From Burkholderia savannae (GTDB taxonomy: Bacteria; Pseudomonadota; Gammaproteobacteria; Burkholderiales; Burkholderiaceae), in NCBI RefSeq assembly GCF_001524445.2, contig NZ_CP013417.1:3162001-3226000 (forward strand): a DNA stretch of 64,000 nt, given 5' to 3'. Shown here one piece after another: positions 44,779-64,000 of this stretch. Within the stretch, counting starts at the first letter, position 1. Each line of letters opens with the position of its first letter. Under the pieces are notes generated by a model. The model ran no database searches. It saw nothing but the letters and a program-made list of their open reading frames with translations, and had not been told where the DNA came from. A program made the translations under genes and the position numbers.

Positions 44779-44784
44779 CAAATC

Positions 44785-47927: not shown

Positions 47928-48872
47928 TCACGGCAGAGTAATGCGTGGACGATTGTCCCAAGGCGGAACCGGCGTGAAATACTCGATCAACTCGTCGATC
48001 ACCGCCCGCACCTTCGGCGACAGTTTGCGCGCCGCGAGCCAAAGCGCATGAATCGGCATCTCGCCCCCGGTGAATTCCGACAGCACGATTTCGAGCTTGC
48101 CCGCATGCACATCGTCGGCGACGAGCCACGTCGGCAAATACGCGAGCCCCGCGCCAGCCAGCGTCGCATCGCGCAATGCGTCGCCCTGCCCGATCGTATG
48201 CTTCGCACGCACTCGCGCCGTTACAGCCCCGTTGCACGCATCGGAAAACACCCATGGAATCGTCGCCCCGTCGCGGGCGAACACAATGCAATCGTGCGCT
48301 TCGAGCTCGTCGATCGTCCTCGGCCGCCCTCGCGTGGCGACATATGCCGGCGACGCGCACAGCACGGATCGCTGAACGCCGAGCCGCCGACAAACCAGAT
48401 TCGCGCTGTCGCGCAGCTCGCCGAGACGCACGACGACGTCGATTCCCTCATCGACCAGATCGACGAATCGATCGGTCAACGATACGTCGAGCTGTAGCAG
48501 CGGATGTCTACGGGCCAGCCCGAACAGAACGGGCAGCACCCAGCGCCGTCCGAACGACGTCGGCAGACTGATGCGCAGCGGCCCCGCGACTTCATGACGC
48601 CGCTGCGCGAGCACCGATTCGACATGCCCGAGCTCGTCGAGAATCCGCAAGCAACTTTCGTAGTACAGGCGCCCCTCGGTCGTCGGCGTCAGTGCGCGCG
48701 TCGTACGCTCGAGCAGCCGCACGCCGAGACGCGCCTCGAGCCGCGCCACGTTCTTGCCGACGGCCGACTTGGACAGCCCCATGCGCGCCGCGGCGGCCGT
48801 GAAGCTGCCCGCGCCGACTGCATGCACGAATGCAACCATTCCTTGAAGATGAGTCAGTCTGATTCGATTCAT
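47928..48872 (-). CDS. LysR-family transcriptional regulator
   Basis: 314 residues from MNRIRLTHLQGMVAF. N-terminal wHTH (GSFTAAAARMGLSKSAVGKNVARLE) and a periplasmic-binding-like effector domain. Divergent from the MDR oxidoreductase gene with a 124-bp shared region, so probably its regulator. Confidence 0.92.
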   Translation of the reverse strand: MNRIRLTHLQGMVAFVHAVGAGSFTAAAARMGLSKSAVGKNVARLEARLGVRLLERTTRALTPTTEGRLYYESCLRILDELGHVESVLAQRRHEVAGPLRISLPTSFGRRWVLPVLFGLARRHPLLQLDVSLTDRFVDLVDEGIDVVVRLGELRDSANLVCRRLGVQRSVLCASPAYVATRGRPRTIDELEAHDCIVFARDGATIPWVFSDACNGAVTARVRAKHTIGQGDALRDATLAGAGLAYLPTWLVADDVHAGKLEIVLSEFTGGEMPIHALWLAARKLSPKVRAVIDELIEYFTPVPPWDNRPRITLP

Positions 48873-48996
48873 GAAATTGGCGACGAAATGGCGCAGGTGT
48901 TCGGAACAGATATCGCCACCGGCACGCATGCCCCACCCCTAGAATGAATCAAGGGAATTCGCGGCGGCGCGAATCCGTTTTCGGGTGGGACACCAA

Positions 48997-50028
48997 ATGG
49001 CGCAAACGATGAAGGTGTGGGAACTCGACGCATTCGGCATCGATCGACTCGCACTCGCGCAGCGGCCCGTGCCGAAGCCCGGCGACGGCGAGTTGCTGGT
49101 ACGGGTAGCGGCGGCGTCATTGAATTATCGAGACAAGCTCGTGATCGAAGGGCAGTTGATGTCGACCAAACCCGCGATGCCGTTTACGCCCGTCTCGGAC
49201 ATGTGCGGCGAAGTGGTCGAAACCGGCCCGAATACCGAACGATTCAAGCGCGGCGATCGCGTGATGGGCAACTTCTGGACGCCCTGGATCAGCGGCGCGC
49301 TGCCTCCCGAAATGCGCCGATGCGAGCGCTCGCTCGGCGGGCCGCTGCCCGGCGTGCTCGCCGAATACGTCGTGCTGCCGGAATCGGCGGCCGTCTGCGC
49401 ACCGGCGTCGCTGTCCGACGTCGAGGCATCGACGCTGCCCGTGGCCGGCGTGACCGCCTGGGTCGCCCTCGTCGAGCGCGGGCAGCTCGCAGCAGGTCAA
49501 ACCGTCGTCGTTCAGGGCACGGGCGGCGTCGCACTGTTCGGACTGCAAATCGCCCGCGCGCTCGGCGCGAAGACGATCGTGCTGTCCCGTCACGACGACA
49601 AGCTCGTGCGCGCGAAATCGCTCGGCGCATGGGCCGGCATCAACACGACGCGCGCGCCCGAATGGGAACATGCGGTTCTCGAACTCACCGGCGGACGCGG
49701 CGCGAACGTGATCGTCGAACTCATCGGCGGCGAGAACGTCACACATTCCGTCGCCGCCGTCGCGGATCATGGCCATATCGTGCAGGTCGGTTTTCTTGGC
49801 AGTCCGAAGATGCTCATCGACGCGATTCCGCTGATGCTGACGCGCGCGTCGATCCACGGCGTATCGGTCGGCAGCCGGCAGGCGTTCGAAGCGTTCGTTC
49901 GCGCAGCCGACCGGCATGCGATCAAGCCGACGATCGACTTCGTCTATCCGTTCTCCGATGTGCGCGCTGCGTTCGCCCATCTCGACCGCGGACCGTTCGG
50001 CAAGATCGTCGTCGCCGTGCGCGGCTGA
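48997..50028 (+). CDS. Zinc-independent MDR alcohol dehydrogenase / quinone-reductase-like
   Basis: 343 residues from MAQTMKVWELDAFG; a second ATG lies 12 nt on. SLNYRDKLVIEGQL, the VQGTGGVALFGLQIARALGA NAD(P)-binding loop and VELIGGENV place it with NADPH:quinone oxidoreductase-like MDR proteins. The usual catalytic-zinc Cys is replaced by Tyr in NYRD and the structural-zinc Cys cluster is not evident. Substrate unknown. Convergent with the OYE gene. Confidence 0.88.
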   Translation: MAQTMKVWELDAFGIDRLALAQRPVPKPGDGELLVRVAAASLNYRDKLVIEGQLMSTKPAMPFTPVSDMCGEVVETGPNTERFKRGDRVMGNFWTPWISGALPPEMRRCERSLGGPLPGVLAEYVVLPESAAVCAPASLSDVEASTLPVAGVTAWVALVERGQLAAGQTVVVQGTGGVALFGLQIARALGAKTIVLSRHDDKLVRAKSLGAWAGINTTRAPEWEHAVLELTGGRGANVIVELIGGENVTHSVAAVADHGHIVQVGFLGSPKMLIDAIPLMLTRASIHGVSVGSRQAFEAFVRAADRHAIKPTIDFVYPFSDVRAAFAHLDRGPFGKIVVAVRG

Positions 50029-50110
50029 CGTGCGTCGCGCACGGCGACGCGTCGCCGGCAAACCGCCCGCCGCGCGCGACGCTCGCTCGCGGGCCGTCTC
50101 ATCGGCGCCG

Positions 50111-51241
50111 TCACGTCAACGTCGAGAACATGTCCTTGCGATACGGCACGATACGATCGAATTCGCCCGTCCGCACTTTGGCCGGCCATTCCGGATCCGC
50201 GAGCAGCGCGCGTCCGAGCGCGATGCAGTCCGCATGCCCCGCCTCGACGCGCGCGACCGCGCGATCGAGATTCTCGATGCCGACCACCAAACCCTCCGCG
50301 CCGCGTACTTGCGCAGCCGAGAACGCGCTGTCGATGCCGACGCTGCCGACCATGATGACCGGCTTGCCGGACAGCTCGCGCACGAGCGACGCCAAATCGG
50401 CGTCGCCTTCCGACGCGAACGCCGGCTCCCAGAAGCGTCGCGTGCTGACGTCGAAAATATCGACGCCCGCGGTGACGAGCACGTCGAGCATCGTCTTCAG
50501 TTCCGCAGACGATTCGACGATGAAGCCCGTATAGTCCTGCACCTTCCATTGCGAGAACCGGAAGATCAGCGGTATGTTCGGGCCGACGGCCGCGCGCACC
50601 GCTTCGGCGACTTCCACCGACAGGCGCAGCCGGTTCTCGAGCGAGCCGCCGTACGCGTCGGTGCGCGCGTTCATCTTGGCCCACAGGAATTGGTCGAGCA
50701 GATAGCCATGCGCGCCGTGCAGTTCGACCGCGTCGAATCCGGCCTCGACCGCGTCGTACGCCGCGCGTGCGAACGACGCCGCGATATCCCGCGCATCGGC
50801 ATCCGTCAACGCCTCGACCGCGACGACGCCGTCCTTGACGACCCGCTCGGGCCCGATGCCCGGCAGCTCCGCATGGGGCGGCGTGCCGCGCTGCCTGACG
50901 TTGCCGAGATGCCAGAGCTGCGCGGCGATCACGCTGCCCGCCGCGTGCACGCCGTCGACGACGCGCCGCCAGCCTTCGAGCGCCTCCCGGCCGAAGAAGT
51001 GCGGAACGTCGGCGAACCCGCCCGCCACCGGATGGTCGACGTACGTCCCCTCGGTGATGATGAATCCGGCGCCGCCCTCGGCGCGCTTCGCGTAGTAGCG
51101 CGCGACGTCGCGGTCCGGCACGCCGCCCGGCGACTGCCGCCGGGTCATCGGCGCCATGACGATGCGGTTCGGCACGCGTAAGCCGCCGAGTGAAACCGGA
51201 TCAAAAACGATATCGAAATTGGAGACGCTGGTCGTCGACAT
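50111..51241 (-). CDS. Old yellow enzyme-type NADH:flavin oxidoreductase
   Basis: 376 residues from MSTTSVSNFDIVF. FMN-binding TIM barrel: VMAPMTRRQSPGGVPD, IITEGTYVDHPVAGG, AQLWHLGNV, and HGAHGYLLDQFLWAKMN with the NxxH-type pair seen as H-x-x-H. It reduces activated C=C bonds. Next upstream on the same strand, after 111 bp, is the DAHP synthase. Confidence 0.9.
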   Translation of the reverse strand: MSTTSVSNFDIVFDPVSLGGLRVPNRIVMAPMTRRQSPGGVPDRDVARYYAKRAEGGAGFIITEGTYVDHPVAGGFADVPHFFGREALEGWRRVVDGVHAAGSVIAAQLWHLGNVRQRGTPPHAELPGIGPERVVKDGVVAVEALTDADARDIAASFARAAYDAVEAGFDAVELHGAHGYLLDQFLWAKMNARTDAYGGSLENRLRLSVEVAEAVRAAVGPNIPLIFRFSQWKVQDYTGFIVESSAELKTMLDVLVTAGVDIFDVSTRRFWEPAFASEGDADLASLVRELSGKPVIMVGSVGIDSAFSAAQVRGAEGLVVGIENLDRAVARVEAGHADCIALGRALLADPEWPAKVRTGEFDRIVPYRKDMFSTLT

Positions 51242-51352
51242 GAAGTCCTCGTCGGCTGGCTGAATGGGGCGCACACAGCGCGCGGCATATGGGCGCGCGC
51301 GCCATGCACGACGGATGAAACGACAGACACTCGTACAGTCGGCCGGGCCGGC

Positions 51353-52744
51353 TCACGCCGCTTGCTCGTCGCGCTGCAGGCTCTCGCGCGGATCGCGCCG
51401 CGCCGACAGCTTTTCCGAGACCAGAAACGCAAGCTCCAGCGCCTGCGAACCATTCAGCCGCGGATCGCAATGCGTGTGATAGCGTTCGCACAACTGATCG
51501 TCGCGAATCTGCTGTCCGCCGCCCGTGCACTCCGTCACGTCGGTGCCCGTCATTTCGAGATGCAGACCGCCCGCATGCGTGCGCTCGGCTTCGTGAACGT
51601 CGAAGAAGCGTTCGACCTCGAGCAGGATGCTTTCGAAGCGGCGCGTCTTGTAGCCGGACGCCGACTTGACCGTGTTGCCGTGCATCGGATCGATCGACCA
51701 GATCACCTCCCGCCCTTCGCTCTTCGTCATTCGCACGAGGCGCGGCAATAGCTCCGGCAACTTTTCCGCGCCCATTCTCGCGATCAGCGTGAGACGCCCC
51801 GGCTCGTTGTCGGGATTCAGCGCGTCGATCAGGCGCAGCAGATCGTCCGGCTTGATCGCGGGACCACATTTGAGGCCGATCGGATTCGCGACGCCTCGCA
51901 GGAATTCGATGTGCGCGTCGTCGATGCCGCGCGTGCGCTCGCCGATCCACAGCATGTGGGCCGAGCAGTCGTACCAATCCTCGGTCAGCGCATCCGGCCG
52001 CGTCAGGGCCTCTTCGTAATGCAGGAGCAATGCGTCGTGGCTCGTGTAGAGATCGGTCTCGCGCAGCGAACGCACCGAATCCGGCGACACGCGGCACGCG
52101 TTCATGAACACGAGCGCCTGCTCGATCCGGCACGCGATCTGCCGATAGCGCTGCCCTTGCGGCGCGGACGCGACGAAGCCGGCATTCCATTGCTGCACGT
52201 GGCGCATGTCGGCGAAGCCGCCGTGGCTCAACGCGCGCAGCAGATTGAGCGTCGCTGCCGCTTGCGAGTATGCCTTCAGCACGCGCTCGGGATCGGGCCG
52301 CCTCGCCGCTTCCGTGAATTCGATGCCGTTGATGATGTCGCCACGATAACTCGGCAGCGTGACACCACCGATGGTCTCGTCGGGCGAACTGCGAGGCTTC
52401 GCGAATTGCCCGGCGATTCTGCCCACCTTGACGACGGGCAGCCCGGTGCTGAACGCAAGCACGGTCGACATCTGCAGAAACACGCGCAGCAGATCACGCA
52501 CCGCATTCGGATGAAATTCGGCGAACGATTCGGCGCAATCGCCGCCTTGCAGCAGAAACGCATTGCCGCGCGCGACGTCCGCGAGTTGCGCCTTCAGATC
52601 GCGAATCTCCGCAGCGAGCACAAGCGGCGGCAATCGCCGCAACTGCTCCTCCGACTCCGCGAGTTTCGCGGCGTCGGGATAAGTCGGCACCTGATGAATC
52701 GGCCGCCCGCGCCACGACGAAGGCGACCAATCAGCGTGCGTCAT
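51353..52744 (-). CDS. Class II 3-deoxy-7-phosphoheptulonate (DAHP) synthase
   Basis: 463 residues from [15 protein letters not shown]. It condenses PEP with erythrose-4-phosphate, the entry to the shikimate pathway. [14 protein letters not shown] (metal Cys70), [30 protein letters not shown] and [11 protein letters not shown] are class II motifs. Class II enzymes occur both in primary metabolism and, as PhzC-like paralogues, in natural-product clusters. Here its neighbours are redox genes and tyrA, favouring a dedicated pathway. Confidence 0.93.
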
Positions 52745-53088
52745 GATGGCCCTCTCGCGTACCATCCGGATCGACACGCGATCCGCAGTCGCCGATCGGC
52801 GCGACGGCGGCATGCAACGCAGGCTCGGGTTGCGCCTGGCCCACGGGAAGCGTGGCGCCGATCAACACATCGTAATCGTAGTGATCCACAGTCAGGCTCC
52901 GACAAAGCAGATAACCGCCCGCGGCTCGCGCCAGCGGGGACTTGCCTCACTCCAGCCACACTCGTCGCTGCATACGTCATGCATCGAGCACGTCAGCGTT
53001 GCTCCGTCGCGCAGGCGCGATCACGCGTGCCGACGCATCGCTCGAGCGGCCCACGCGGCGCACGCGATGCGCGGGCCCGCCGCCGTCG
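52745..53088. other. 344-bp spacer, no gene seen
   Basis: Between the EthD-like gene and the DAHP synthase gene on the same strand. Frames here are short and Arg-rich. Long enough for a separate DAHP synthase promoter, though no clear -35/-10 pair stands out. Confidence 0.4.
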
Positions 53089-54096
53089 TCATCGCGTCGA
53101 CGTTTCCGGGAAGATCTGATTGACCACTTGATATGCAAGTGCGGTCCAATATTCGCTCGTGTCCGCGGCGACGAGCTTCGCCTCTTCGTCGGCGAGCCCC
53201 ACCACACCGGGGTCCAGCAGAAAGTCCTCGAGATCGTTGATCGACGTGAACGCGAGAATCGACACGCCGTCGATCGTGTGCCCGACCGAGTGGAAGAACG
53301 GCTCGCCTTCCCGAATCGGACCGACGTTGTGCAATTGCACGTAGCGCTTGACGTAGCGGCTCGTCGCGGCCTGCTCGAGCACGCGCGGCGCGTACCGGTT
53401 CAACCAGGCGTCGTGAAAATCCGCGCGGGACAGCGACGCATTGCGCCGAGCGACCTTCACGAGCAGGAACGATTCGCGCTGCGTCTCGCTCGGCACGATG
53501 ATGTGCTGGCGCGCGAGCACCGGGCACAGCTCGCGAAAGATCGCCTGGTCTTCCGGCAAGACCTTCGCGGCGATCTCCGGTTGGCTGAAGACGGCCTGCA
53601 GGCCGGCGACGTTCTCGAAGCCGAGATACGCGATGCCGTCCCACTGCGGACGGCGATATTCGGGAATGTGGCCGATCACGGTGTCGAACAGTTTGCCGTT
53701 CGCGTCGACGGGCGGCTCGTACGGCAGCGGCGCGCCGCTCGACGGGCCGGCCGGCAGCCGATGAATCTGGTCGTAGCGAAGCAGATGCTGAATGCCGTTT
53801 GCCACGGGCGGCTGCGCGTAGATGAAGCGCGGGCCATGTACTTTTCGCCAGTACTCTGTCCACTTCTCGAACGCGACGTTCGGGTTGGACTCGAACGCGC
53901 TCGTCTCGGCCGCAGGGTCCTTGATCAGTTCGCCGCGGGCGTCGAGCAGCAGGTTCGGGTCCCTGCGGCGTTCGCCGAGCGGCGAGTTGTCCGCACGGGA
54001 CAACAGCGAACAGATGACCGTCAGCGGCTCCGCATACGAACGGTAGCTCTTCAGATAAGGCGGACGAAATAGGCTTTCGGCGGAAGCATTGGACAC
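53089..54096 (-). CDS. EthD-like domain protein
   Basis: 335 residues if started at the GTG at 54096 (AGGAG 6 nt upstream); an ATG at 54144 would add 16. Two ferredoxin-like halves are suggested: the first with FEKWTEYWRKVHGPRFIYAQPPV, the second with SLSRADFHDAWLNRYAPRVLE, each like the EthD/dimeric alpha-beta barrel signature. Relatives help in ring-processing, decarboxylation or cyclisation in aromatic polyketide and degradative pathways. The exact role is unknown. Confidence 0.68.
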   Translation of the reverse strand: MSNASAESLFRPPYLKSYRSYAEPLTVICSLLSRADNSPLGERRRDPNLLLDARGELIKDPAAETSAFESNPNVAFEKWTEYWRKVHGPRFIYAQPPVANGIQHLLRYDQIHRLPAGPSSGAPLPYEPPVDANGKLFDTVIGHIPEYRRPQWDGIAYLGFENVAGLQAVFSQPEIAAKVLPEDQAIFRELCPVLARQHIIVPSETQRESFLLVKVARRNASLSRADFHDAWLNRYAPRVLEQAATSRYVKRYVQLHNVGPIREGEPFFHSVGHTIDGVSILAFTSINDLEDFLLDPGVVGLADEEAKLVAADTSEYWTALAYQVVNQIFPETSTR

Positions 54097-54532
54097 GACT
54101 GACTCCTGCTCTTCGGAATGGTTGATCGCATTGCCGAGACGCATCGTTTGGCCGCTCGCCGCGCAACCGGCGCAACGAGCGACGCACGCTCGCCCGGCAT
54201 CGATGAGATCCCGCAACAATTCAGCACCGCTTATCATTGGATCGGCGGGCCGAGCAGTTCGACTCGGCCGCCGTCACGACGCACGTCCGGACATCGCTCG
54301 CGGCCGCGCATCACGGCCGCTCGACGCATCGGATGCGCCGCACTCTCAGGTCCCGCGAGCGACGAGCGGACCGGCTGGCGCGCGCATCGCCGCTCCGTCG
54401 GAACGATAGGCTCGCTGGCCCGCATCGCTCGGACGGTCGACACTTGCGACCAATAATCGCACGAGATTAGATCGCATGCAATCTAATTTAAACCCCGTTC
54501 GAGCCGCACGATTTCCGTTTGCCGCGCGACGT
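54097..54532. promoter_or_regulatory. 436-bp upstream region with palindromes
   Basis: No gene seen. It holds ATTAGAT-N8-ATCTAAT (54466-54487) and TGCGA-N7-TCGCA (54445-54461), in an A/T-rich dip. These are candidate operators for the leftward EthD-like gene. Confidence 0.45.
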
Positions 54533-54955
54533 TCATGCGAACGGCGCGGGATGCGGCGGAAACGGCTTCTCGTCGGCCCCACCATCGGTCGAATCGACGC
54601 GAGTCGACGGAAAGACGACCGCGCGCGCCGTCCCTGACAACACCGTCGCGCCATCCGGCAGCCACGCGCGGCCGTTGAAGCGCACGACGTCGCCGTTGAG
54701 GCCCGAATGCGGCTCGACGGCCTCGACGCTCCATGCGATCAGGCACTTGCTGCCGGGCTCGGGCGTGCTCCTGCAGTCGACGGCGAACGACAGCAGCGCA
54801 CTTGCGCCATGCTCGGCCGCGAACGCGAGAAACAACGCGGAGAACGCGGACGCCAACTTCGCCTGCGCCGCGAAGCGGTGCTCGGGCGTGTGCGACGCGG
54901 CCAGCGACACCCAGTCGCTGCGCGTCTCGCCGATCGAATATCTGGACCGACCCAT
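54533..54955 (-). CDS. Small protein, possible hot-dog-fold thioesterase-like
   Basis: 140 residues from MGRSRYSIGETRSDW with aggaga upstream. The alternating pattern (SALFLAFAAEHGASALLSFAVDCRS..CLIAWSVEAVEPHSG..GTARAVVFP) resembles a single hot-dog domain, but no MaoC or thioesterase catalytic motif is clear. Divergent from tyrA. Treated as unknown. Confidence 0.55.
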   Translation of the reverse strand: MGRSRYSIGETRSDWVSLAASHTPEHRFAAQAKLASAFSALFLAFAAEHGASALLSFAVDCRSTPEPGSKCLIAWSVEAVEPHSGLNGDVVRFNGRAWLPDGATVLSGTARAVVFPSTRVDSTDGGADEKPFPPHPAPFA

Positions 54956-55109
54956 TGCTTCTCCTGAAAACGACGGAGTCATCCGCCAGCGCAGCCGGAT
55001 ACGGCGACGTCGGGCGCTCTTTTTTATCGCAACAATATTAGTCTCTTGAGATGTAAAGTGTGAATATACTGGGATCGACGAGCGATTTCTCGCTCGAGGA
55101 GAAAGCCGA

Positions 55110-56012
55110 ATGGAACGCTTTTCGGTCCAGCGCGTGGGCATCGTCGGGCTGGGGCTGCTCGGCGGCTCGATTGCGCGCGCGGCGAGGCAACGCCTTCCCG
55201 GCGTCGAGCTGATCGGGTTCGACGCGAACGAGGACGTTCGGCGCCGCGCCGTCGCCGGCTCGGTGATCGACGACGCGCCGGATTCGCTCGACGGCCTGTC
55301 GCGCGCCGAATTCGTCGTCGTCTGCGTGCCCGTGAGCGCGGTGGCCGCCATCGTCGAACGGCTCGCGCGCGGCAATCCGCGAGCGACCGTCACCGATGTC
55401 GCGTCGTCGAAGCAGTCGGTGATTCGCATGCTCGCGGGACGGCTGCCGCCCGGCTTCGCGTTCGTGCCCGCGCATCCGATGGCGGGCGGCGAAAAAGGCG
55501 GCCTCGACGCCGGCCGCGCCGATCTGTTCGAGGGCAAGAGCTGCCTGATCACGCCGACGAACGCGACGCCCGCGGACGCGACGGCGCGCGTCGAAACATT
55601 CTGGCGATCGCTTGGCGCGACTCCGCAGCGCTCGGACCCGGCGACGCACGACCGCATGGTCGCGCTGACTTCGCACCTACCGCATCTGCTCGCGTTCGCG
55701 CTCGTCGAGAATCTCGCCTTCGACCGTCCGGAGAGCCGCGACGTCGCGCCGTTCATCGGCCGCAGTCTTGACGAGCAGATTCGGCTTGCGTCGTCCGAAC
55801 CCGCGGTGTGGGCGAGCATCTTCGAAACCAACGCGTCCGAGCTTCTCGCGCAGCTCGAACGTTTCCAGCGCAGGCTCGCCGACTGGCGCGACCTGATCGC
55901 GCGCGCGCCCGCGGGCCTGTCCGAGCGGCTCGCGCAAACGACCCGGACTGCGCGCGCATTCGCCTTTGCGAAGCATCGCTCCGAGGAAGTCGAATGCGCG
56001 TCAACCCGGTAG
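55110..56012 (+). CDS. Prephenate dehydrogenase (TyrA family)
   Basis: 300 residues. Rossmann loop VGIVGLGLLGGS (9-20), TDVASSKQSVI, the HPMAGGEKGGLDAG substrate loop and SHLPHLLAFALV. It oxidises prephenate to 4-hydroxyphenylpyruvate with NAD(P)+. No chorismate mutase or ACT part. Being next to a class II DAHP synthase, it suggests dedicated 4-hydroxyphenylpyruvate or tyrosine supply rather than the housekeeping copy. Confidence 0.9.
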   Translation: MERFSVQRVGIVGLGLLGGSIARAARQRLPGVELIGFDANEDVRRRAVAGSVIDDAPDSLDGLSRAEFVVVCVPVSAVAAIVERLARGNPRATVTDVASSKQSVIRMLAGRLPPGFAFVPAHPMAGGEKGGLDAGRADLFEGKSCLITPTNATPADATARVETFWRSLGATPQRSDPATHDRMVALTSHLPHLLAFALVENLAFDRPESRDVAPFIGRSLDEQIRLASSEPAVWASIFETNASELLAQLERFQRRLADWRDLIARAPAGLSERLAQTTRTARAFAFAKHRSEEVECASTR

Positions 56013-56660: not shown

Positions 56661-56994
56661 CGTCCGCGGCGAAACAGCCGCGCGCCGCCCCCGCGCGCTC
56701 ACCCGATATTCCATTCTTCGCGTCCGTCGCACTGCCGTCGGCCGCACGCCTTTCTTTCCCCTCCTTCGCCGCCCGGCCGTTCTCGCGTCGGCAATCCTTC
56801 ATCCCACTCGTTGACTCGCATTTTGGCGGACAAAATATGGAGTATTGCGACTAAATCGCACATGATTTATTCTCGCCGGTGAATTGTTCCCGGAGTCGGT
56901 CAGTACTCCAACTTACCCTGAGCATCGTCGTTGACTCGTTGCTGCACCGGGTGAAAGACGATTGCGCCATCGAAGCACATCTCAAGGCGATTCG
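56661..56994 (+). promoter_or_regulatory. Upstream region of the carboxylase operon
   Basis: 334 bp with no gene seen. TTGCGA (56845-56850), 17-bp spacer, TATTCT (56868-56873) could be the promoter; TGCGACTAAATCGCA (56846-56860) is a palindrome overlapping its -35 and spacer, a good place for repressor binding. Confidence 0.45.
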
Positions 56995-58503
56995 ATGAGT
57001 GATCTTTCCGGAGTAGAAGAACGTTCGCGCGAACGGCAACCTCAAGCTGCCGAGCCCCCCGTCCATATCCGACGGCTTCGGGAACTGCTCGATCCCGGCT
57101 CGTTCCGCGAACTCGACGCGCTCGCCGAACACGACTGCACATGGTTCGGCGCGGATCGCCGCAAGCAGCCGGGCGACGGCATCGCGACCGGGCACGGCAC
57201 GATCGACCGCCGCCCCGTGCTCGTCTATGCACACGACGGCGGCTTCCTCGGCGGCAGTTCGAGCCGCATTCACGCATTGAAGATCGGCAAGGTGCTCGAT
57301 CTCGCGCTGCGCATCGGCGTGCCGATCGTCGCGCTCAATCATTCGTCGGGCCTGCGCATCCACGAAGGCGTCGACGCCGACTCGCAGTTCAGCCACGTGT
57401 TCTACAAGACGGTGCGCGCGTCGGGCGTCGTGCCGCAGATCTCTCTGATACTCGGCGACTGTGTGGGCGGCGCAGCCTATACGCCAGCGCTCACCGATTT
57501 CATCGTGATGGTCGACAAGGAGTCCGCACTATTCCTGACGGGCCCCGCGGTGATTCGGCGCGCGACCGGCGAAGAAGTCACGAAGGAGGAAATCGGCGGC
57601 GGGCATCTGCATGCGGCCGAAACCGGGCTCGCGCACTTTCTGGCCGAATCGGCCGACGACGCAATCGCGATCGCGCGCGAGCTCCTGTCGTATCTGCCGC
57701 AGAACAACGCGTCGCTCGTGCCGGCGACGCTCGGGCCCGCGACGCTGCCGCGCGCGCTCGACGGCATCGACGATATCGTGCCCTCGAGCAAGACCGAGCC
57801 GTTCGACGTGCGCCGCCTGATCGAGCTGGCCGCCGACGATCACGTGTTCCTCGAGGTGCATCGGCTGTATGCGCGCAACATCGTCGTCGGCTTCGCCCGC
57901 ATCGGCGGGCAGAGCGTCGGCATCGTCGCGAACCAGTCCGCGTGGCTCGCCGGCTGTCTCGACATCGACGCGTCGGAAAAGGCCGCGCGGTTCGTGCGCA
58001 CCTGCGACGCGTTCGGCATTCCGATCCTCACGCTCGTCGACGTGCCGGGCTATCTGCCGGGCAAACAGCAGGAACGCTCGAACGTGATCGGCGCGGGCGC
58101 GAAGCTGATGCACGCGTATTGCGAGGCGGTCGTGCCGAAGCTCGCCGTCGTGTTGCGCAAGGCGTACGGCGGCGCTTATCCGACGCTCGCGAACCGCTCC
58201 GCGACGGACGTGATCTATGCCTTTCCCGACGCGGAGATCTCGGTGATGGGGCCGGAGGCCGCGGTCGACGTCATTTTCCGCAAGGAGCTCGCGAACGCGC
58301 CGGATGCGGCCGAACATCGCGGCGCGCTGATCGACGAATACCGCAATGCGCACGCGAGCGCGCGCTATTCGGCGAGCCGCGCGTACATCGAAGGGCTCGT
58401 CGAGCCCGCGGAACTGCGCAATGCCGTGGTCTCGACGTTCACGCTGCTGCGCGAGAAGATCGCGGGCGCGCCGGGCCGACGCCATTCGAACATCCAACTC
58501 TAG
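56995..58503 (+). CDS. Biotin-dependent acyl-CoA carboxylase, carboxyltransferase subunit
   Basis: 502 residues from ATG 56995. Two crotonase-like halves: DGGFLGGSSSRIHALKIGKVLDLAL and the oxyanion-type GDCVGGAAYTPALTDF in the N-half; LVDVPGYLPGKQQERSNVIGAGAKLM and RKAYGGAYPTL in the C-half. As in propionyl-, acetyl- and methylcrotonyl-CoA carboxylases, it transfers CO2 from biotin to the alpha or gamma carbon of an acyl-CoA. It begins an operon with HMG-CoA reductase, biotin carboxylase and BCCP. Acceptor substrate unknown. Confidence 0.92.
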   Translation: MSDLSGVEERSRERQPQAAEPPVHIRRLRELLDPGSFRELDALAEHDCTWFGADRRKQPGDGIATGHGTIDRRPVLVYAHDGGFLGGSSSRIHALKIGKVLDLALRIGVPIVALNHSSGLRIHEGVDADSQFSHVFYKTVRASGVVPQISLILGDCVGGAAYTPALTDFIVMVDKESALFLTGPAVIRRATGEEVTKEEIGGGHLHAAETGLAHFLAESADDAIAIARELLSYLPQNNASLVPATLGPATLPRALDGIDDIVPSSKTEPFDVRRLIELAADDHVFLEVHRLYARNIVVGFARIGGQSVGIVANQSAWLAGCLDIDASEKAARFVRTCDAFGIPILTLVDVPGYLPGKQQERSNVIGAGAKLMHAYCEAVVPKLAVVLRKAYGGAYPTLANRSATDVIYAFPDAEISVMGPEAAVDVIFRKELANAPDAAEHRGALIDEYRNAHASARYSASRAYIEGLVEPAELRNAVVSTFTLLREKIAGAPGRRHSNIQL

Positions 58504-58517: not shown

Positions 58518-59744
58518 ATGGGCATTCCGAGAGATTCGCAAAACGACTACGCCGCCGCCCAGGTCGACGCGCGCTTGCGCTGGGTCGAAGCCGAGACGGG
58601 CAAGCGCTATCCGCATCTCGGCGGCGCGAGCGTTGCGCCTGAAGCGGTGCAGGGCACGTGTGAGAATTTCACGGGCTTCGTCGGCATTCCGCTCGGGCTC
58701 GCGGGCCCGCTGAAGATCAACGGCGCGCACGCGCGCGGCGAGTTCGTCGTGCCGCTCGCGACGACGGAAGGCGCGCTCGTCGCGTCGTTCTCGCGAGGCA
58801 TGAATCTGATCTCGGACAGCGGCGGCTGCACGACGACGCTGCTCGCGAACGCGCAGCCGACCGACGCCCGGCCCGCGTACCGCTTTCTCGGCGACGCGCT
58901 CACCAAAGTTTCGGCGATCGTGCTGCGCTCGGCCGACGACGCAAGCGCATTCGACGCATGGCTGCGCGAGCACGTCGCGCAAGTCGTCGACGCGGCGAAC
59001 GCGACGAGCCGTCACGCGCGCCTGCTCGAAGTCACGCCGCTGTTGCAGGGCGATCTCGTCGGCCTTGCGTTCACATACGAGACCGGCAACGCGATGGGCC
59101 TGAACATGGCGACGAAGGCGAACGAGGCGGCCTGCCGCTACATCGCCGAGCATTGCCCGCAGTTCGTCGACGGCTACCTGAACACGCTCGGCGGCGACAA
59201 GCGTTTCGTCGCGGATCAGGCGAAGGGCCGCTACGTATCGGCAAGCGTGCGCATTCCGGCCGCGCTGGTCGAGGCCCGTCTGCGCACGACTCCGGCGCGG
59301 ATGCGCCGTTTCCTGCAGGCGTGCAACACGCTGCTCGCGCAGCGCGGCGCAACCGCGCCGAACATTCATGTCGCGAACGCGCTGACCGCGCTTTTCATCG
59401 CGTGCGGCCAGGACCCGGCGTTCGTTACCGTATCGTTCAAGAACGCATGCACGACCTTCGACGTTCTGGACAACGGCGATCTGCTCGCGGCCGTCACGCT
59501 GCCGAACGTGATCGTCGGCGTCGTCGGCGGTGGCACGCGCCTGCCCGCGCAACAGGAATGCCTGCGCATGCTCGGCTGCGAGGACGATGCGCGCAAGCTC
59601 GCCGAGATCGCTGCCGCCGTCGCGCTCGCGGGCGAAGTGTCGGTCGCGGGCGCCGTGAGCGCCGGCGAATTCACGCGCGCGCATACGGTGCTCGGGCGAG
59701 GACTCAAGCAAGCCGAGCAAACGCCGTCGGAGCTCGCGACATGA
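58518..59744 (+). CDS. Hydroxymethylglutaryl-CoA reductase-like protein (class I type)
   Basis: 408 residues. Catalytic residues of HMG-CoA reductase are all present: Glu84 (ATTEGALVAS), Lys228 (GGDKRF), Asp299 (CGQDPA) and His389 (TRAHT). ENFTGFVGIPLGLAGPL, TGNAMGLNMATKANEA and VGGGTRLPAQQECLRMLGC follow class I order; length fits a soluble catalytic domain. The reaction is a four-electron reduction of a thioester to an alcohol with NAD(P)H. No mevalonate-pathway partner lies nearby, so another acyl-CoA may be the substrate. Ends in ATGA overlap with the biotin carboxylase. Confidence 0.9.
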   Translation: MGIPRDSQNDYAAAQVDARLRWVEAETGKRYPHLGGASVAPEAVQGTCENFTGFVGIPLGLAGPLKINGAHARGEFVVPLATTEGALVASFSRGMNLISDSGGCTTTLLANAQPTDARPAYRFLGDALTKVSAIVLRSADDASAFDAWLREHVAQVVDAANATSRHARLLEVTPLLQGDLVGLAFTYETGNAMGLNMATKANEAACRYIAEHCPQFVDGYLNTLGGDKRFVADQAKGRYVSASVRIPAALVEARLRTTPARMRRFLQACNTLLAQRGATAPNIHVANALTALFIACGQDPAFVTVSFKNACTTFDVLDNGDLLAAVTLPNVIVGVVGGGTRLPAQQECLRMLGCEDDARKLAEIAAAVALAGEVSVAGAVSAGEFTRAHTVLGRGLKQAEQTPSELAT

Positions 59745-61237
59745 GCGTGAAACGCGTCCTGCTTTGCTGCCGCGGCGAGATCGCGCTGCGCTTCGTGCGC
59801 ACCTGCCGGCTGCTCGACATCGAAACCGTCGCGATCTACACCGACGACGACGACAACGCCGGCTTCGTGCTCGCCGCCGATTCGGCGTTCCACATCGACG
59901 CGTGGAATCCGGCGACGCTGATCGACACCGTGATCTCGATCGCGCAGGCGGTGCGCGCGGACGCGGTCGCGCCCGGCTACGGCCCGCTTGCCGAGAACGC
60001 GGCGTTCGCGGCGGCTTGCGCGGCCGAGGGGCTCGTCTTCGTCGGTCCGCATGCCGAAGCGATTCGCCGCACCGGCGACAAGATCGAGGCGCGCGCGGCC
60101 GCGCAACGCGCAGCCGTGCCCGTCGTGCCGGGCGCGACGGTCGCCAACGACGCACAAGCGGCAACGGCCGCGGCCGAAATCGGCTTTCCGATTCTGATCA
60201 AGGCGGCGCTCGGCGGCGGCGGCCGCGGCATACGCGTCGTCGAGCGCGCGGAGCAGTTCGACGACGCGCTGGCCGAGGTGCGCCGCGAGGCGAAGCTCGC
60301 ATTCGGCAGCGACGACATCTATCTGGAGCGCTTCCTCGGCGAGCGAATCCGCCACATCGAAGTGCAGGTGCTCGGGGACCGTCGCGGCAATCTGCTGCAT
60401 CTCGGCACGCGCGAATGCAGCGTGCAGCGGCGCCGGCAGAAGATCGTCGAGGAGGCGCCCGCGCCCGCGCTGTCCGATGCGCTGCGCGAGCGGCTGCACG
60501 AGTCCGCGCTTGCAGTCGCGCGCGAGGTTGGATACGACAACGCGGGCACGGTCGAATTTCTCGTCGACGGCAACGAGCGGTTCTACTTCATCGAGATGAA
60601 TGCGCGCATTCAGGTCGAACATCCGGTCAGCGAAGCCGTGACGGGCGTCGACATCGTCGAGCAGATGTTGCGCGCCGCGGCCGGCGAACCGCTCAGCCTG
60701 TCGCAAGACGACGTGCGTTTGCGCGGCTCGGCGATCGAATTCCGCATATGCGCGGAAGACGCGCACGCGGACTTCCTGCCGACGGGCGGCGGCGTCACGC
60801 ACTACCGCGTACCCGAAGGGCCCGGCATCCGGATCGACTCGGGCGTGCACGCGGGCGCGCGGCAATCGACGCGTTTCGACAGCCTGTGCCTGAAGCTGAT
60901 CGTCGACGCCGCAACGCGCGAGCGCGCGCTGCGCCGCGCGCGCAACGCGCTGCGCGAGCTCATGATCGCGGGCTTCAGCACGAACGTGCCGTTCCATCTG
61001 TGGCTGGTCGATCATCCGCCGTTCAAGCTCGGGCGCTACGACCTGTCGGTCACGCGAGACTTCCCGTTCGCCCACCGCGTGCCGGACGACACCGCGCGCG
61101 TGTTGCACGCGCTCGCGGCTCTTGCGGCTCACTGCAGCGGCGCGCCGCTTCCGGCGCGCGCAGGCGAGCCGGCCGTCGATGCATCGGCACCCTCCGCGTG
61201 GGTGACGCGAAACGACCGCCGCGCCTGGGCATCGTGA
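59741..61237 (+). CDS. Biotin carboxylase subunit
   Basis: 498 residues. ATP-grasp enzyme that carboxylates biotin. GGGGRGIRVV (glycine loop), CSVQRRRQKIVEEAPAP and EMNARIQVEHPVSEAVTG are intact. Non-standard are GYGPLAEN where most have GYGFLSEN, and CCRGEIA for NRGEIA, which hints at an old, divergent copy. The start overlaps the reductase stop by 4 nt. Confidence 0.92.
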   Translation: MSVKRVLLCCRGEIALRFVRTCRLLDIETVAIYTDDDDNAGFVLAADSAFHIDAWNPATLIDTVISIAQAVRADAVAPGYGPLAENAAFAAACAAEGLVFVGPHAEAIRRTGDKIEARAAAQRAAVPVVPGATVANDAQAATAAAEIGFPILIKAALGGGGRGIRVVERAEQFDDALAEVRREAKLAFGSDDIYLERFLGERIRHIEVQVLGDRRGNLLHLGTRECSVQRRRQKIVEEAPAPALSDALRERLHESALAVAREVGYDNAGTVEFLVDGNERFYFIEMNARIQVEHPVSEAVTGVDIVEQMLRAAAGEPLSLSQDDVRLRGSAIEFRICAEDAHADFLPTGGGVTHYRVPEGPGIRIDSGVHAGARQSTRFDSLCLKLIVDAATRERALRRARNALRELMIAGFSTNVPFHLWLVDHPPFKLGRYDLSVTRDFPFAHRVPDDTARVLHALAALAAHCSGAPLPARAGEPAVDASAPSAWVTRNDRRAWAS

Positions 61238-61286: not shown

Positions 61287-61862
61287 ATGAGCCTTCCCCT
61301 GCTTCACACGTCTTACACGGGCACGTTGAGCGGTGCGCCGGAAGACGAGCCGCCCGCGCGCATCGACGTCCGCACGCTCGAGGCCGGCACCTATCGCGCG
61401 ACGTTCAACGACGGCGACTCGTTGCTGCTTCGCCTCGTATCTCGCGAGTCGCTGCCCGACGGCGTCGTTCGGCTCGTCGCAGACGCGAACGGCACGCGTC
61501 ACGACATCCTCGTCTCGCCCGCCGCAAACGGCGGCGTCACGCTCGACTATGCCGGCATCCGTCGCACCGTCGACACGCGCGGCGCGCGGCGACGCGCAGC
61601 CGGATCGCGCGGCGGTGGCCGGTCGACGCACACGGCGATTGCCGCGCCGATGCCCGCGCGCATCGCGGAAGTGCTCGTCGCCGAATCTGATGTCGTCGAA
61701 GAAGGCGCACCCGTGGTTCGCATCGAAGCGATGAAGATGCTGATGACGCTGTCCGCGCCGCTCCGTTGCCGGATCGAAGCCGTGCACGTGGCCGTCGCGG
61801 ACAACGTCGAGGCGGGCGCGCTGCTCGTCAGCTTCGCCGACGTACACGCCGATTCCGCATGA
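61287..61862 (+). CDS. Biotin carboxyl carrier protein with N-terminal extension
   Basis: 191 residues. The biotinyl domain is the last ~75 residues with EAMKM (biotinylated Lys150). The first ~110 residues form a beta-rich section like the N-terminal BT-type domain of fused carboxylases, then an Arg/Gly linker. Completes a three-gene carboxylase. Confidence 0.9.
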   Translation: MSLPLLHTSYTGTLSGAPEDEPPARIDVRTLEAGTYRATFNDGDSLLLRLVSRESLPDGVVRLVADANGTRHDILVSPAANGGVTLDYAGIRRTVDTRGARRRAAGSRGGGRSTHTAIAAPMPARIAEVLVAESDVVEEGAPVVRIEAMKMLMTLSAPLRCRIEAVHVAVADNVEAGALLVSFADVHADSA

Positions 61863-61919
61863 CCGCCGCACCCGGGTCATTCTCCCGAATCTGAATCTCC
61901 ACACTACCGCGGAGTTGCC

Positions 61920-63314
61920 GTGAGCCTCGAATCCCACATCACCGAGTACTGCGACGCCCTCACCTATTCGACCGTCGATCCCGCCGCGATCGAGATTGCG
62001 AAACACTCGCTGATCGACATTCTCGGCGTGTCGATCGCCGGCTCGCGCGACGCCGAGGTCGCGCTGCTCGCCGGCATCGTCGAGCACTGGGGCGGGCTGC
62101 CCGAAGCGCGCGTGCTCGGCCGCGCGAGCCGCCTGCCCGCACCCGCCGCCGCGCTGCTGAACGGCGCGTCGGCGCGCGCGCTCGATTTCGACGACGTCGC
62201 CGATCCGCTCGGCACACACCCGAGCGTCGCGATCCTGCCGCCGCTACTGGCCATCGCCGATCTGCGCGGCGACGAAATCGACCACCAGTCGTTTCTCACC
62301 GCATACATCGCCGGGCTCGACCTGTCGATCCGGTTGTCGCGCGCGCGCCGCGAGACGCTGCTCGAAAGCGGACGCTACGACCTATGCAAGGTGATCGCCG
62401 CGACGGCCGCGGCCGGCATGCTGTACGGGCTCAAGGGCGACACGCTGCGCCATGCGATGGGCATCGCCTATACGTCCGCGCTCGGCGAAACGCAATGCAT
62501 GATCGACGGCGCGCCGACGGTGTTCTATCAGCAAGGGCTCGTCGCCACGAACGCGGTTCGCGCGGTCGTACTCGCGTCACACGGCTTCACGGGCGCGCGC
62601 GATTTTCTCACGGGCCGCTGGGGCTACTACTCGGCGTTCGAGCCGGGTTCCGCGATCGAGACGATCGACGCCGATCTCGGCAAGACCTTCGCCAACGTCG
62701 ACGGCATCGCGTTCAAACCGTTTCCGACCTGCCGCCCGAACACATCCGCGGCCGCACTCACGCTCGAGCTGACGAAGGGGGAGCGCCTGAGCGCGTCGCA
62801 GATCGAGCGCGTCGACATCCGGACCAACCGGCAGATCCATGACCTCGTCAGCGCGCCCGTCGAGCGCAAGCAGGCGCCGACGAGCGTCGTCGAGGCGCGC
62901 TTCAGCATCGCGTACAACGTCGCGACGGTGCTCGCGACGGGCGATCTCTTCATCGGCGATTTCACCGAAGAAGCGATTCGCCGGCCCGACGTGATCGCCG
63001 TAAGCCGGAAGATCCATCCGGCCGCCGCCCCCGATTGCGAATGCGCCGCGCTCGGCACGCACGGCAAGATCAAGATCGCGATTCAGCGCGTCAACGGCGC
63101 TGTCCTCTCGGGTGAAGTGTCATATGCGAAAGGCAATCCGAAGAATCCGATGAAGCTCGACGAATTGGTCGCGAAGTTCGGCAAGTGCGTCGCATACTCG
63201 GGCCTTGCGCACGTGAGCGCGAACCGCCTCGCCATCGTCGACTGGATCGTCGATCGATCCGATCGGAATCCGAAATACGCGCGGCTCGCGGAGCTGCTGC
63301 ACGCACCCGCGTAA
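61920..63314 (+). CDS. MmgE/PrpD family protein
   Basis: 464 residues from a GTG with GGAG 5 nt upstream. KHSLIDILGVSIAGSRD, NGASARALDFDDVADP and FKPFPTCRPNTSAAA are conserved for MmgE/PrpD, whose members include 2-methylcitrate dehydratase and cis-aconitate decarboxylase. Last gene of the operon; it suggests a branched polycarboxylate or beta-hydroxy acid is dehydrated or decarboxylated. No methylcitrate synthase lies nearby. Confidence 0.9.
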   Translation: MSLESHITEYCDALTYSTVDPAAIEIAKHSLIDILGVSIAGSRDAEVALLAGIVEHWGGLPEARVLGRASRLPAPAAALLNGASARALDFDDVADPLGTHPSVAILPPLLAIADLRGDEIDHQSFLTAYIAGLDLSIRLSRARRETLLESGRYDLCKVIAATAAAGMLYGLKGDTLRHAMGIAYTSALGETQCMIDGAPTVFYQQGLVATNAVRAVVLASHGFTGARDFLTGRWGYYSAFEPGSAIETIDADLGKTFANVDGIAFKPFPTCRPNTSAAALTLELTKGERLSASQIERVDIRTNRQIHDLVSAPVERKQAPTSVVEARFSIAYNVATVLATGDLFIGDFTEEAIRRPDVIAVSRKIHPAAAPDCECAALGTHGKIKIAIQRVNGAVLSGEVSYAKGNPKNPMKLDELVAKFGKCVAYSGLAHVSANRLAIVDWIVDRSDRNPKYARLAELLHAPA

Positions 63315-63317
63315 GAA

Positions 63318-63343
63318 CATCCGCTCCGCGATCGGAGCGGATG
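63318..63343. terminator. First of two convergent hairpins
   Basis: Perfect 11-bp stem catccgctccg/cggagcggatg (63318-63328 with 63333-63343), loop cgat, four bases after the MmgE/PrpD stop. It has no T-run; it may assist the next one. Confidence 0.6.
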
Positions 63344-63362
63344 CGCGCCGCCCTGAACGACA

Positions 63363-63420
63363 CGAGAGCCGATGCGCGGGGCCGTTCGGCCCGCGCATCG
63401 GCTCTCGCCTTTTCTCTTTT
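63363..63420. terminator. Terminator of the carboxylase operon
   Basis: Perfect 18-bp stem (63363-63380 with 63390-63407; cgagagccgatgcgcggg left arm) followed by ccttttctctttttct. It separates the operon from the convergent oxidoreductase. Confidence 0.88.
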
Positions 63421-63428
63421 TCTCGCGC

Positions 63429-64000
63429 CTACTCGACCGTTTCCGCGCCGCGTTCGTCGAGCGCGGGAACGGCGACGGGCACCGCCGCCTCCGCGCGGCC
63501 GGTAAGGATTCGCTCGACTAGCCGCGCCTGCCGCTCGCGCACCTTCTCGACCGCGCGCGCCTTCACGTGCCCGTAGCCGCGAATTGCGTCCGGCGCCTTC
63601 GCCCAGGCGACGATCTCCGCCAGCGTGTCGCGCTCCAGCTTGAGCAACAGACGCTCGAGCGTCTGCTCGTATTCGCGGACGAGTCGTCGCTCGTCGCGGC
63701 GCTCCGTCGTCCATCCGAACGGATCGAACGGCGTGTGCCGCAACGCGCGGCTCGCCGCCAGCACCCGGAATACCGGAACGATCCAGCCCGAGAACGCGCG
63801 CTTGCGCGGCGGCTGCTCGCCTGGCTTCGAAAGCGCGTCGAGCGTCGGCGGCGCGAGATGGAACGTCAGCTTCGCCGGGCCTTCGAACTGCTCGCGCAGC
63901 TCATCAAGAAACGCCTTCGACGTATGCAGGCGCGCAACCTCGTACTCGTCCTTGTACGCCATCAGCTTGAACAGCGTGCGTGCGACCGCTTCGGCCAACG
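63429..64000 (-). CDS. Indolepyruvate ferredoxin oxidoreductase family protein, C-terminal part
   Basis: The frame is open to the right edge; ~190 C-terminal residues are visible. The MAYKDEYEVARLHTSKAFLDEL and ..RTDEYEQTLERLL-like patterns and the RGYGHVKARAVEKVRERQARLVE ending match the DUF6537 tail of fused IorA/B-type enzymes. These decarboxylate aryl- or branched 2-oxo acids to acyl-CoA with an electron acceptor. Convergent with the carboxylase operon; may be housekeeping or part of the same chemistry. Confidence 0.82.
   Translation of the reverse strand, partial: LAEAVARTLFKLMAYKDEYEVARLHTSKAFLDELREQFEGPAKLTFHLAPPTLDALSKPGEQPPRKRAFSGWIVPVFRVLAASRALRHTPFDPFGWTTERRDERRLVREYEQTLERLLLKLERDTLAEIVAWAKAPDAIRGYGHVKARAVEKVRERQARLVERILTGRAEAAVPVAVPALDERGAETVE

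What the first reader, a model, noticed from the sequence alone, without database searches (positions are those of the whole stretch)
47928..64000. Possible undescribed pathway joining aromatic precursor supply with a dedicated carboxylase and HMG-CoA reductase
Seen: class II DAHP synthase, TyrA, OYE reductase, MDR reductase, EthD-like protein, LysR and MarR regulators, then carboxyltransferase, HMG-CoA reductase-like, biotin carboxylase, BCCP and MmgE/PrpD, with an aryl-2-oxo acid oxidoreductase at the end. Known: DAHP synthase and TyrA lead to 4-hydroxyphenylpyruvate; IOR enzymes turn arylpyruvates to arylacetyl-CoA; biotin carboxylases carboxylate acyl-CoA; HMGR reduces a thioester to an alcohol. 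Inference: an arylacetyl- or acyl-CoA is carboxylated to a malonyl-type CoA, then reduced to a 3-hydroxy-2-substituted propanoate, with MmgE/PrpD dehydrating or decarboxylating a product.
Basis: partly seen in the sequence, partly recalled or inferred. Interest (0 to 1): 0.8.

Follow-up and report, generated by a model that had tools for sequence, protein, structure and literature searches.

The report
Conserved carboxylase–HMG-CoA-reductase aromatic gene cluster
A rare, patchily spread set of about fifteen genes shared by Burkholderia, Pseudomonas, Photorhabdus and Xenorhabdus probably makes an unknown small aromatic compound from a tyrosine precursor by an enzyme combination that we did not find described.

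Summary
In 13 of 13 genomes found through the HMG-CoA-reductase-like (HMGR) gene, five genes (carboxyltransferase, HMGR, biotin carboxylase, biotin carrier, MmgE/PrpD) stand in the same order: Burkholderia, Paraburkholderia, Pseudomonas, Photorhabdus, Xenorhabdus. In 10 of 13 they come with EthD, an aryl-2-oxo-acid oxidoreductase (IOR) and a flavin hydroxylase that lies just past the window end. DAHP synthase, OYE, TyrA, MarR and exporters recur in subsets. A palindrome, TTGCGAnTAnnTCG, precedes the operon in 8 of 8 loci with the cluster MarR gene. The HMGR clade is rare: 3 of 65 genomes of the genus, window included. Cluster IORs differ from the Burkholderia and Pseudomonas paralogues, and the PrpD-like protein has lost the family's His/Lys/His residues in 40 of 40 members. 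Best reading: 4-hydroxyphenylpyruvate to 4-hydroxyphenylacetyl-CoA, carboxylated, then reduced to a 2-aryl-3-hydroxypropanoate, tailored and exported. The cluster is shown; the chemistry is inferred. Ten paper searches found no description.

The parts
47928..48929 (-). LysR-type regulator at the cluster edge
   Evidence: PF03466/PF00126; 80% copy in the same place in G083; LysR genes at 43-46% beside MFS-EthD in two Xenorhabdus
48985..50028 (+). MDR-type Zn-dependent reductase
   Evidence: PF00107/PF08240; 87% copy in G083; no copy seen in the stretches of the other genera
50111..51274 (-). Old Yellow Enzyme-type FMN reductase
   Evidence: PF00724; copies in 7 of 13 cluster genomes: G000, G083, G307, G200, G201, G202, G204
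51353..52813 (-). class II DAHP synthase
   Evidence: TIGR01358 above cut-off; copies in 5 of 13 cluster genomes: G000, G083, G307, G200, G201; closest solved chain 5uxm
53089..54237 (-). tandem EthD-domain protein, fused alpha+beta barrel (probable ring-tailoring enzyme)
   Evidence: PF07110, two stretches; 10 of 13 cluster genomes; AF2 mean pLDDT 85.9; fold like sulfur oxygenase reductases and anthrone-oxidase-like 5f9p
54533..54994 (-). divergent hotdog/MaoC-like protein, function unknown
   Evidence: aligns with the MaoC gene that follows the core in Paraburkholderia; lacks that protein's GDxSxxHHD stretch; 45% copy in G307, 68% in G083
55110..56012 (+). TyrA, prephenate dehydrogenase
   Evidence: PF02153/PF20463; also in both Pseudomonas clusters, where a chorismate mutase gene is found too; only a fragment in G083, no hit in the G307 stretch
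56217..56660 (+). SlyA/MarR-type regulator, probably cluster-specific
   Evidence: PF01047/PF12802; before the core in 8 of 13 genomes, the 7 other copies at 67-97%
56845..56860 (+). conserved palindrome TTGCGAnTAnnTCG(C/T), probable MarR operator
   Evidence: before the carboxyltransferase gene in 8 of 8 loci with the cluster MarR gene, three genera; with one mismatch allowed the window has 4 matches against 1.43 expected, so the case rests on conserved place, not rarity
56995..58503 (+). acyl-CoA carboxylase carboxyltransferase (beta) subunit
   Evidence: PF01039; best solved match 1vrg, propionyl-CoA carboxylase beta; Pro at the position aligned with PccB Asp422 in 12 of 12 rows
58518..59744 (+). 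HMG-CoA-reductase-like enzyme
   Evidence: PF00368; catalytic-type Glu84, Lys228, Asp299, His389 in 34 of 34 clade members
59741..61237 (+). biotin carboxylase subunit (start overlaps the HMGR stop by 4 bases)
   Evidence: PF02786/PF02785/PF00289 (sequence)
61287..61862 (+). biotin carboxyl carrier protein with N-terminal extension
   Evidence: PF00364; EAMKM in 10 of 12 rows, ESMKV in the 2 Xenorhabdus
61920..63314 (+). MmgE/PrpD-family protein with changed active-site residues
   Evidence: PF03972/PF19305; 40 of 40 clade members have Tyr153, Val/Ile201 and Thr/Ile/Val275 where the 35 outgroup proteins mostly have His, Lys, His
63364..63406 (.). long inverted repeat between the convergent PrpD and IOR genes, terminator-like
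   Evidence: read directly from the sequence printed; not listed by the terminator scan
63429..64000 (-). C-terminal part of the cluster IOR-type aryl-2-oxo-acid oxidoreductase; ORF continues to about 67,160
   Evidence: PF20169 and PRK13030; 8 cluster copies form one clade

Best explanation
A biosynthetic gene cluster of about 23 kb (47,928 to about 70,620 in window numbering) that makes and exports a small aromatic metabolite without a polyketide or peptide synthetase of its own. Inferred route: DAHP synthase and TyrA raise 4-hydroxyphenylpyruvate; the IOR-type enzyme turns it into 4-hydroxyphenylacetyl-CoA; the three-part biotin carboxylase adds CO2 next to the thioester, giving an arylmalonyl-CoA; the HMGR-like enzyme reduces the thioester to the alcohol, giving a 2-aryl-3-hydroxypropanoate (tropic-acid type). 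The MmgE/PrpD homologue then acts on that product by chemistry that cannot be read from known relatives, perhaps loss of water to a 2-arylacrylate. The flavin hydroxylase, EthD protein and OYE change the ring, MFS proteins export, and MarR controls the operon through the conserved palindrome. Shown: the genes, their linkage, rarity and the shared palindrome. Inferred: every reaction and MarR binding.
For: Core order in 13 of 13 genomes picked by HMGR. HMGR and PrpD are each a discrete clade: HMGR 33 relatives at 53-93% identity, next full-length ones at 39-47%; PrpD 39 listed proteins at 46-99%, then 35%. EthD, cluster FMO and cluster IOR together in 10 of 13. The 8 cluster IORs of Burkholderia, Pseudomonas and Photorhabdus are one clade (100/100), and 14 other IORs of the Burkholderia, Pseudomonas and Paraburkholderia genomes stand apart. 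Xenorhabdus mauleonii and X. khoisanae clusters lie beside phenylacetyl-CoA (paa) genes. Intact TyrA in three genomes, chorismate mutase in both Pseudomonas. Catalytic-type residues of HMGR kept in 34 of 34. A biotin carboxylase subunit means ATP-driven carboxylation (established for the family). Conserved palindrome in 8 of 8.
Against: No enzyme has been assayed. Three Paraburkholderia genomes (two of them nearly the same) have the core without clustered IOR, FMO, EthD or TyrA. TyrA is a fragment in G083 and was not found in the G307, Photorhabdus and Xenorhabdus stretches. The Xenorhabdus cluster IORs are sisters of another Xenorhabdus IOR, not of the other cluster IORs. Loss of the human Lys735 equivalent in HMGR is shared with the nearest other bacterial HMGR proteins, so it says nothing about this clade. 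The PrpD residues argue against a simple 2-methylcitrate-dehydratase-like step. In Photorhabdus asymbiotica the EthD-FMO-IOR block lies about 35 kb from the core. EthD, OYE and MFS also occur together without the core. The palindrome also has an exact match far from the core in L012.
Confidence: 0.42

Rival explanations
1. The core handles a small acyl-CoA (acetyl-, propionyl- or another short acyl-CoA), makes a 3-hydroxypropanoate-type C3/C4 unit, and this unit is then joined to, or accompanies, a separately made aromatic part.
For: The carboxyltransferase is closest to propionyl-CoA carboxylases; the core stands without clustered aromatic genes in three Paraburkholderia, there with a MaoC-type gene and, in two genomes, a thiolase-family and a crotonase-family gene nearby.
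Against: The position aligned with the PccB specificity residue Asp422 is Pro in 12 of 12 rows (its role is recalled); no ligase or transferase that would join the parts was recognised in the shared set, though not every gene was scanned; EthD, FMO and IOR go with the core in 10 of 13 genomes.
Confidence: 0.27
2. A mevalonate-type module: the carboxylase and HMGR make or use HMG-CoA.
For: HMGR-like enzyme with the full catalytic set; closer to class I than class II solved enzymes.
Against: Carboxyltransferase matches propionyl-CoA carboxylase (498 bits) far better than methylcrotonyl-CoA carboxylase (200 bits); no HMG-CoA synthase, lyase or mevalonate kinase was noticed among the families assigned, but the loci were not all scanned gene by gene; TIGR00533 score 249.8, below its cut-off of 441.8.
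Confidence: 0.07
3. A catabolic pathway that runs the other way (tropic-acid-like compound to arylacetyl-CoA).
For: Xenorhabdus clusters lie beside paa genes; tropic acid degradation through arylmalonate semialdehyde is known (recalled, not looked up); LysR and MarR regulators are common in catabolic operons (recalled).
Against: A biotin carboxylase subunit spends ATP to add CO2; DAHP synthase, TyrA and chorismate mutase are supply genes; exporter-type MFS proteins are present; very patchy distribution.
Confidence: 0.1

Closest known systems
Propionyl-/acyl-CoA carboxylase complexes (PccB, AccD)
   Same: carboxyltransferase family, biotin carboxylase, biotin carrier
   Different: Pro at the position of PccB Asp422 in 12 of 12 rows; fixed linkage to an HMGR-like gene; biotin carrier on its own gene
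Class I (NADPH) HMG-CoA reductase of the mevalonate pathway
   Same: family, catalytic-type Glu, Lys, Asp, His
   Different: discrete clade; the GDAMG Asp is changed in 30 of 34 (N, Q or E), NTLGGDKR is invariant; no mevalonate genes noticed beside it. The human Lys735 is absent, but so it is in 86 of 86 nearest other bacterial HMGR proteins
MmgE/PrpD family (cis-aconitate decarboxylase, iminodisuccinate epimerase, 2-methylcitrate dehydratase)
   Same: both Pfam domains, conserved His of the HPS stretch
   Different: His, Lys and His common in the relatives are replaced in all 40 clade members; new invariant Arg152, Tyr153, Asp154, Glu190, Tyr203, Gln204, Gln205
Tropone/tropolone clusters built on phenylacetyl-CoA (passages of PMC11481866 seen)
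   Same: aromatic supply genes (DAHP synthase and a prephenate enzyme) clustered with phenylacetate-derived chemistry in Burkholderia, Trinickia and Pseudoduganella
   Different: prephenate dehydratase there, dehydrogenase here; this cluster has a carboxylase and HMGR; no TdaE-like or PaaZ-like gene was recognised in it, though not every gene was scanned (the role of those genes is recalled)

Membership tests
HMG-CoA reductase | PF00368 domain over the curated cut-off | tested here: met
   297.1 bits, cut-off 27
HMG-CoA reductase | catalytic Glu, Lys, Asp, His | tested here: met
   34 of 34 clade members
HMG-CoA reductase (NADPH) equivalog TIGR00533 | score above equivalog cut-off | tested here: not met
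   249.8 bits against 441.8
HMG-CoA reductase | acts on HMG-CoA | not testable with these tools
   needs an assay
propionyl-/acyl-CoA carboxylase | carboxyltransferase, biotin carboxylase and biotinyl carrier with a biotinylation motif | tested here: met
propionyl-CoA carboxylase | Asp or Ile at the PccB 422 position, as in the two natural solved sequences whose alignments were printed | tested here: not met
   Pro in 12 of 12 rows; only 4 of 74 solved matches were printed residue by residue
MmgE/PrpD dehydratase/decarboxylase | both Pfam domains | tested here: met
MmgE/PrpD dehydratase/decarboxylase | His/His/Lys/His active-site set of characterised members | tested here: not met
   first His kept in 40 of 40, the other three in 0 of 40 clade members. 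The roles of the residues are recalled.
2-methylcitrate dehydratase PrpD (TIGR02330) | score above cut-off | tested here: not met
   28.9 against 458
tropone/tropolone cluster | flavoprotein dioxygenase acting on the paa shunt product | tested here: inconclusive
   none recognised among the families assigned, but not every gene was scanned

The most novel reading that the evidence does not exclude
A new carbon-branching route: an arylacetyl-CoA is carboxylated, its thioester is reduced to the alcohol by an HMG-CoA-reductase relative, and a remodelled MmgE/PrpD enzyme turns the branch into a methylene. Together this is a carboxylate-reduce-dehydrate way to tropic- and atropic-acid-type (2-aryl) compounds in bacteria, feeding an unknown electrophilic antibiotic or signal.
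Probability: 0.33. Interest if true: 0.82.

Novelty: new variant of a known kind. Interest (0 to 1): 0.62.

Why it matters
If right, it is a natural-product cluster without PKS or NRPS genes of its own, so searches built on those genes would miss it, and it gives HMG-CoA-reductase and MmgE/PrpD relatives new roles. The fixed five-gene core and the palindrome are clean handles for finding more members and for testing substrates in vitro. Its patchy spread over distant bacteria suggests a bioactive product (inference).

Tried and rejected
Rejected: chance neighbours or housekeeping genes. The core is linked in 13 of 13 genomes picked by HMGR, yet the clade is in only 3 of 65 genomes of the genus, 3 of 200 of the family and, by PrpD, 1 of 399 of the order, the window's own genome included in each count. 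Rejected as evidence: loss of the human HMGR Lys735 equivalent. I first took it for a sign of a new substrate, but 86 of 86 outgroup proteins (the rest of the 120 listed, one partial row left out) lack it too; the column of Ser684 is ambiguous in the alignment. The 17 other genomes of the phylum sample with HMGR hits at 37-46% identity were set aside as ordinary HMGRs without looking at their neighbourhoods. EthD, OYE and MFS stand without the core in G654, with LysR-like genes by eye, so they are a separable module and not proof of the whole pathway. NRPS genes near the P. japonica and P. asymbiotica clusters were not seen in the listed Burkholderia and Xenorhabdus stretches and were left out. 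Plasmid collection, near mode: no match. Rfam: none in 44000-64000. Ten paper searches turned up no description of the cluster; in 47 and 56 only the best 20 of 463 and of 25 papers were listed. 'Phenylmalonyl-CoA' and four related terms gave one paper, seen only in the listing (PMC8044089, PKS engineering). Most subscription papers are not in that library. EthD fold matches are to a common barrel and show no function.
Full report
What was checked. The window is G000:C1:3162001-3226000, a 7.43-Mb genome in 3 contigs; its nearest named relatives by protein are Burkholderia species. The last gene of the window is the tail of an IOR-type oxidoreductase; the stretch past the window end (L002) shows its whole ORF (1243 aa), then a flavin aromatic hydroxylase (PF01494; PRK08132 subfamily 667 bits, cut-off 416) and an MFS exporter. 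In window numbering the cluster therefore runs from 47,928 to about 70,620.

Is it one unit? A protein search found a discrete HMGR clade: 33 relatives at 53-93% identity, then full-length ones at 39-47% (5653 proteins passed the E-value, the best 120 were listed). One genome-collection scan with that alignment, through two peptide patterns, returned 10 loci in Pseudomonas (2), Photorhabdus (3), Xenorhabdus (2) and Paraburkholderia (3). With the window genome, G083 and G307 this makes 13 genomes; two of the Paraburkholderia (L015, L017) are near copies, and all 13 were picked by HMGR or, for G307, by EthD. Carboxyltransferase, HMGR, biotin carboxylase, biotin carrier and MmgE/PrpD lie in that order in 13 of 13. 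EthD, cluster FMO and cluster IOR go together in 10 of 13; the 3 Paraburkholderia have no EthD at E <= 1e-10 and only more distant FMO and IOR paralogues. DAHP synthase: 5 of 13; OYE: 7 of 13; cluster MarR: 8 of 13 (X. khoisanae has another MarR-type gene, 44%, between EthD and FMO); intact TyrA: 3 of 13 plus a fragment in G083. These last counts are lower bounds, since some loci end early (L010 ends inside EthD). In Photorhabdus asymbiotica the EthD-FMO-IOR block is about 35 kb from the core on the same contig, in P. australis on another contig, and in X. khoisanae the cluster is split over two contigs, near their ends.

Rarity. The window's own genome is included in each count. HMGR clade: 3 of 65 genomes of the genus and 3 of 200 of the family; in the phylum sample 18 of 398 had a hit, of which 17 at 37-46% identity were set aside as ordinary HMGRs, leaving the window alone. 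PrpD clade: 1 of 399 of the order. EthD: 4 of 299 of the family, 3 of 398 of the phylum. G122 holds a decayed remnant with EthD, MarR and pieces of DAHP synthase and exporter, and no core in the 37 kb seen. The pattern is that of an often lost, probably mobile gene cluster; mobility itself was not tested.

Dedication of the parts. In a tree of 26 IORs the 8 cluster copies of Burkholderia, Pseudomonas and Photorhabdus form one clade with full support (100/100); 14 further IORs of the Burkholderia, Pseudomonas and Paraburkholderia genomes stand apart. The 2 Xenorhabdus cluster copies are sisters of 2 other Xenorhabdus IORs, and these four are next to the 8. So the cluster label needs two changes: either Xenorhabdus took a separate IOR into the cluster, or one old cluster IOR gave a copy elsewhere in Xenorhabdus. 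Either way an IOR belongs to the neighbourhood in four genera, the best sign that aryl-pyruvate to aryl-acetyl-CoA conversion is part of the pathway; the family's activity is recalled, not tested. Each of 12 genomes has one carboxyltransferase at 59-100% identity to the window's; the 10 other hits at E <= 1e-30 are at 31-34%. X. mauleonii carries PaaK, PaaJ, PaaI and PaaG (above their cut-offs) and a PaaH-like gene beside the cluster; X. khoisanae has the same gene groups by clustering.

Regulation. Between the MarR gene and the carboxyltransferase gene, a region that is otherwise barely alignable, all 8 loci with the cluster MarR keep TTGCGAnTAnnTCG followed by C or T. In the window it lies at 56845-56860. 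With one mismatch the pattern occurs 4 times in the window against 1.43 expected (6 of 100 shuffles reach 4), so the case rests on its conserved place, not on rarity. Of the 26 stretches scanned, several have one-mismatch matches elsewhere, and L012 (P. ginsengisoli, no cluster MarR) has an exact match at 1741, over 6 kb from its core; X. mauleonii, X. khoisanae and P. piptadeniae core loci have none. P. japonica has a one-mismatch copy between EthD and FMO. That MarR binds the site is inference.

Residues. HMGR: the catalytic set is complete in 34 of 34. Carboxyltransferase: Pro at the place of PccB Asp422 in 12 of 12 rows (G307 was not in that alignment); the solved sequences printed have Ile or Asp, and Ala or Asn in two variants. 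That this position sets acyl specificity is recalled from the literature. MmgE/PrpD: compared with 35 outgroup proteins of the 77 found (three partial or fused rows dropped: P0296, P0304, P0317), the 40 clade members keep the first His but have Tyr for His at 153 (His in 25 of 35 outgroup), Val or Ile for Lys at 201 (Lys in 25 of 35) and Thr, Ile or Val for His at 275 (His in 30 of 35). So it is a member of the family whose active site was rebuilt; its reaction should not be taken from the family name.

How it may work. With only the C-C chemistry that the recognised shared genes can supply (no ketosynthase was seen among them), the shortest scheme is arylpyruvate, arylacetyl-CoA, arylmalonyl-CoA, 2-aryl-3-hydroxypropanoate, and then either a 2-arylacrylate or a ring-modified product. 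The supply genes TyrA and chorismate mutase point to the 4-hydroxyphenyl series. The main open doubt is Paraburkholderia, where the core has other partners (a MaoC gene, with thiolase- and crotonase-family genes nearby in two genomes).

Known or not. Ten full-text searches turned up no description of this combination. For tropolone clusters I saw passages of PMC11481866: DAHP synthase and prephenate dehydratase occur in those of Burkholderia, Trinickia and Pseudoduganella, a parallel in logic but with different enzymes. The verdict is an undescribed cluster of known enzyme families: firm as a unit, likely as an aromatic biosynthetic pathway, open in its chemistry.

Noticed in passing
window 35270-43164: Filamentous-phage-like prophage beside a tRNA-Met gene: integrase, rolling-circle replication protein, M13 protein IV-like assembly protein, Zot-like protein, minor head protein, ssDNA-binding protein, with lower G+C (0.56-0.59).
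   Followed up: partly
L105 6441-12118 (G654): EthD, OYE and MFS genes, with LysR-like genes by eye, stand together without the carboxylase/HMGR core: a separable module, perhaps for tolerance to a reactive aromatic.
   Followed up: partly
L083-L084 (G122): Decayed copy of the cluster: EthD and MarR kept, DAHP synthase and exporter in pieces, no core in the 37 kb seen.
   Followed up: partly
window 54533-54994 and L012 14822-15262: The small gene beside EthD is a divergent relative of the MaoC gene that follows the core in Paraburkholderia, without that protein's GDxSxxHHD stretch.
   Followed up: partly
protein lists P0014, P0022, P0136, P0257, P0259: HMGR, EthD or PrpD clade members also in Chromobacteriaceae, a Sinorhizobium and an Amycolatopsis, so the cluster may cross phyla; their neighbourhoods were not seen.
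   Followed up: no
L009 1-6134, L013 2-5197: NRPS genes next to the P. japonica and Photorhabdus asymbiotica clusters, with a thioesterase in P. japonica; whether they use the product is open.
   Followed up: no
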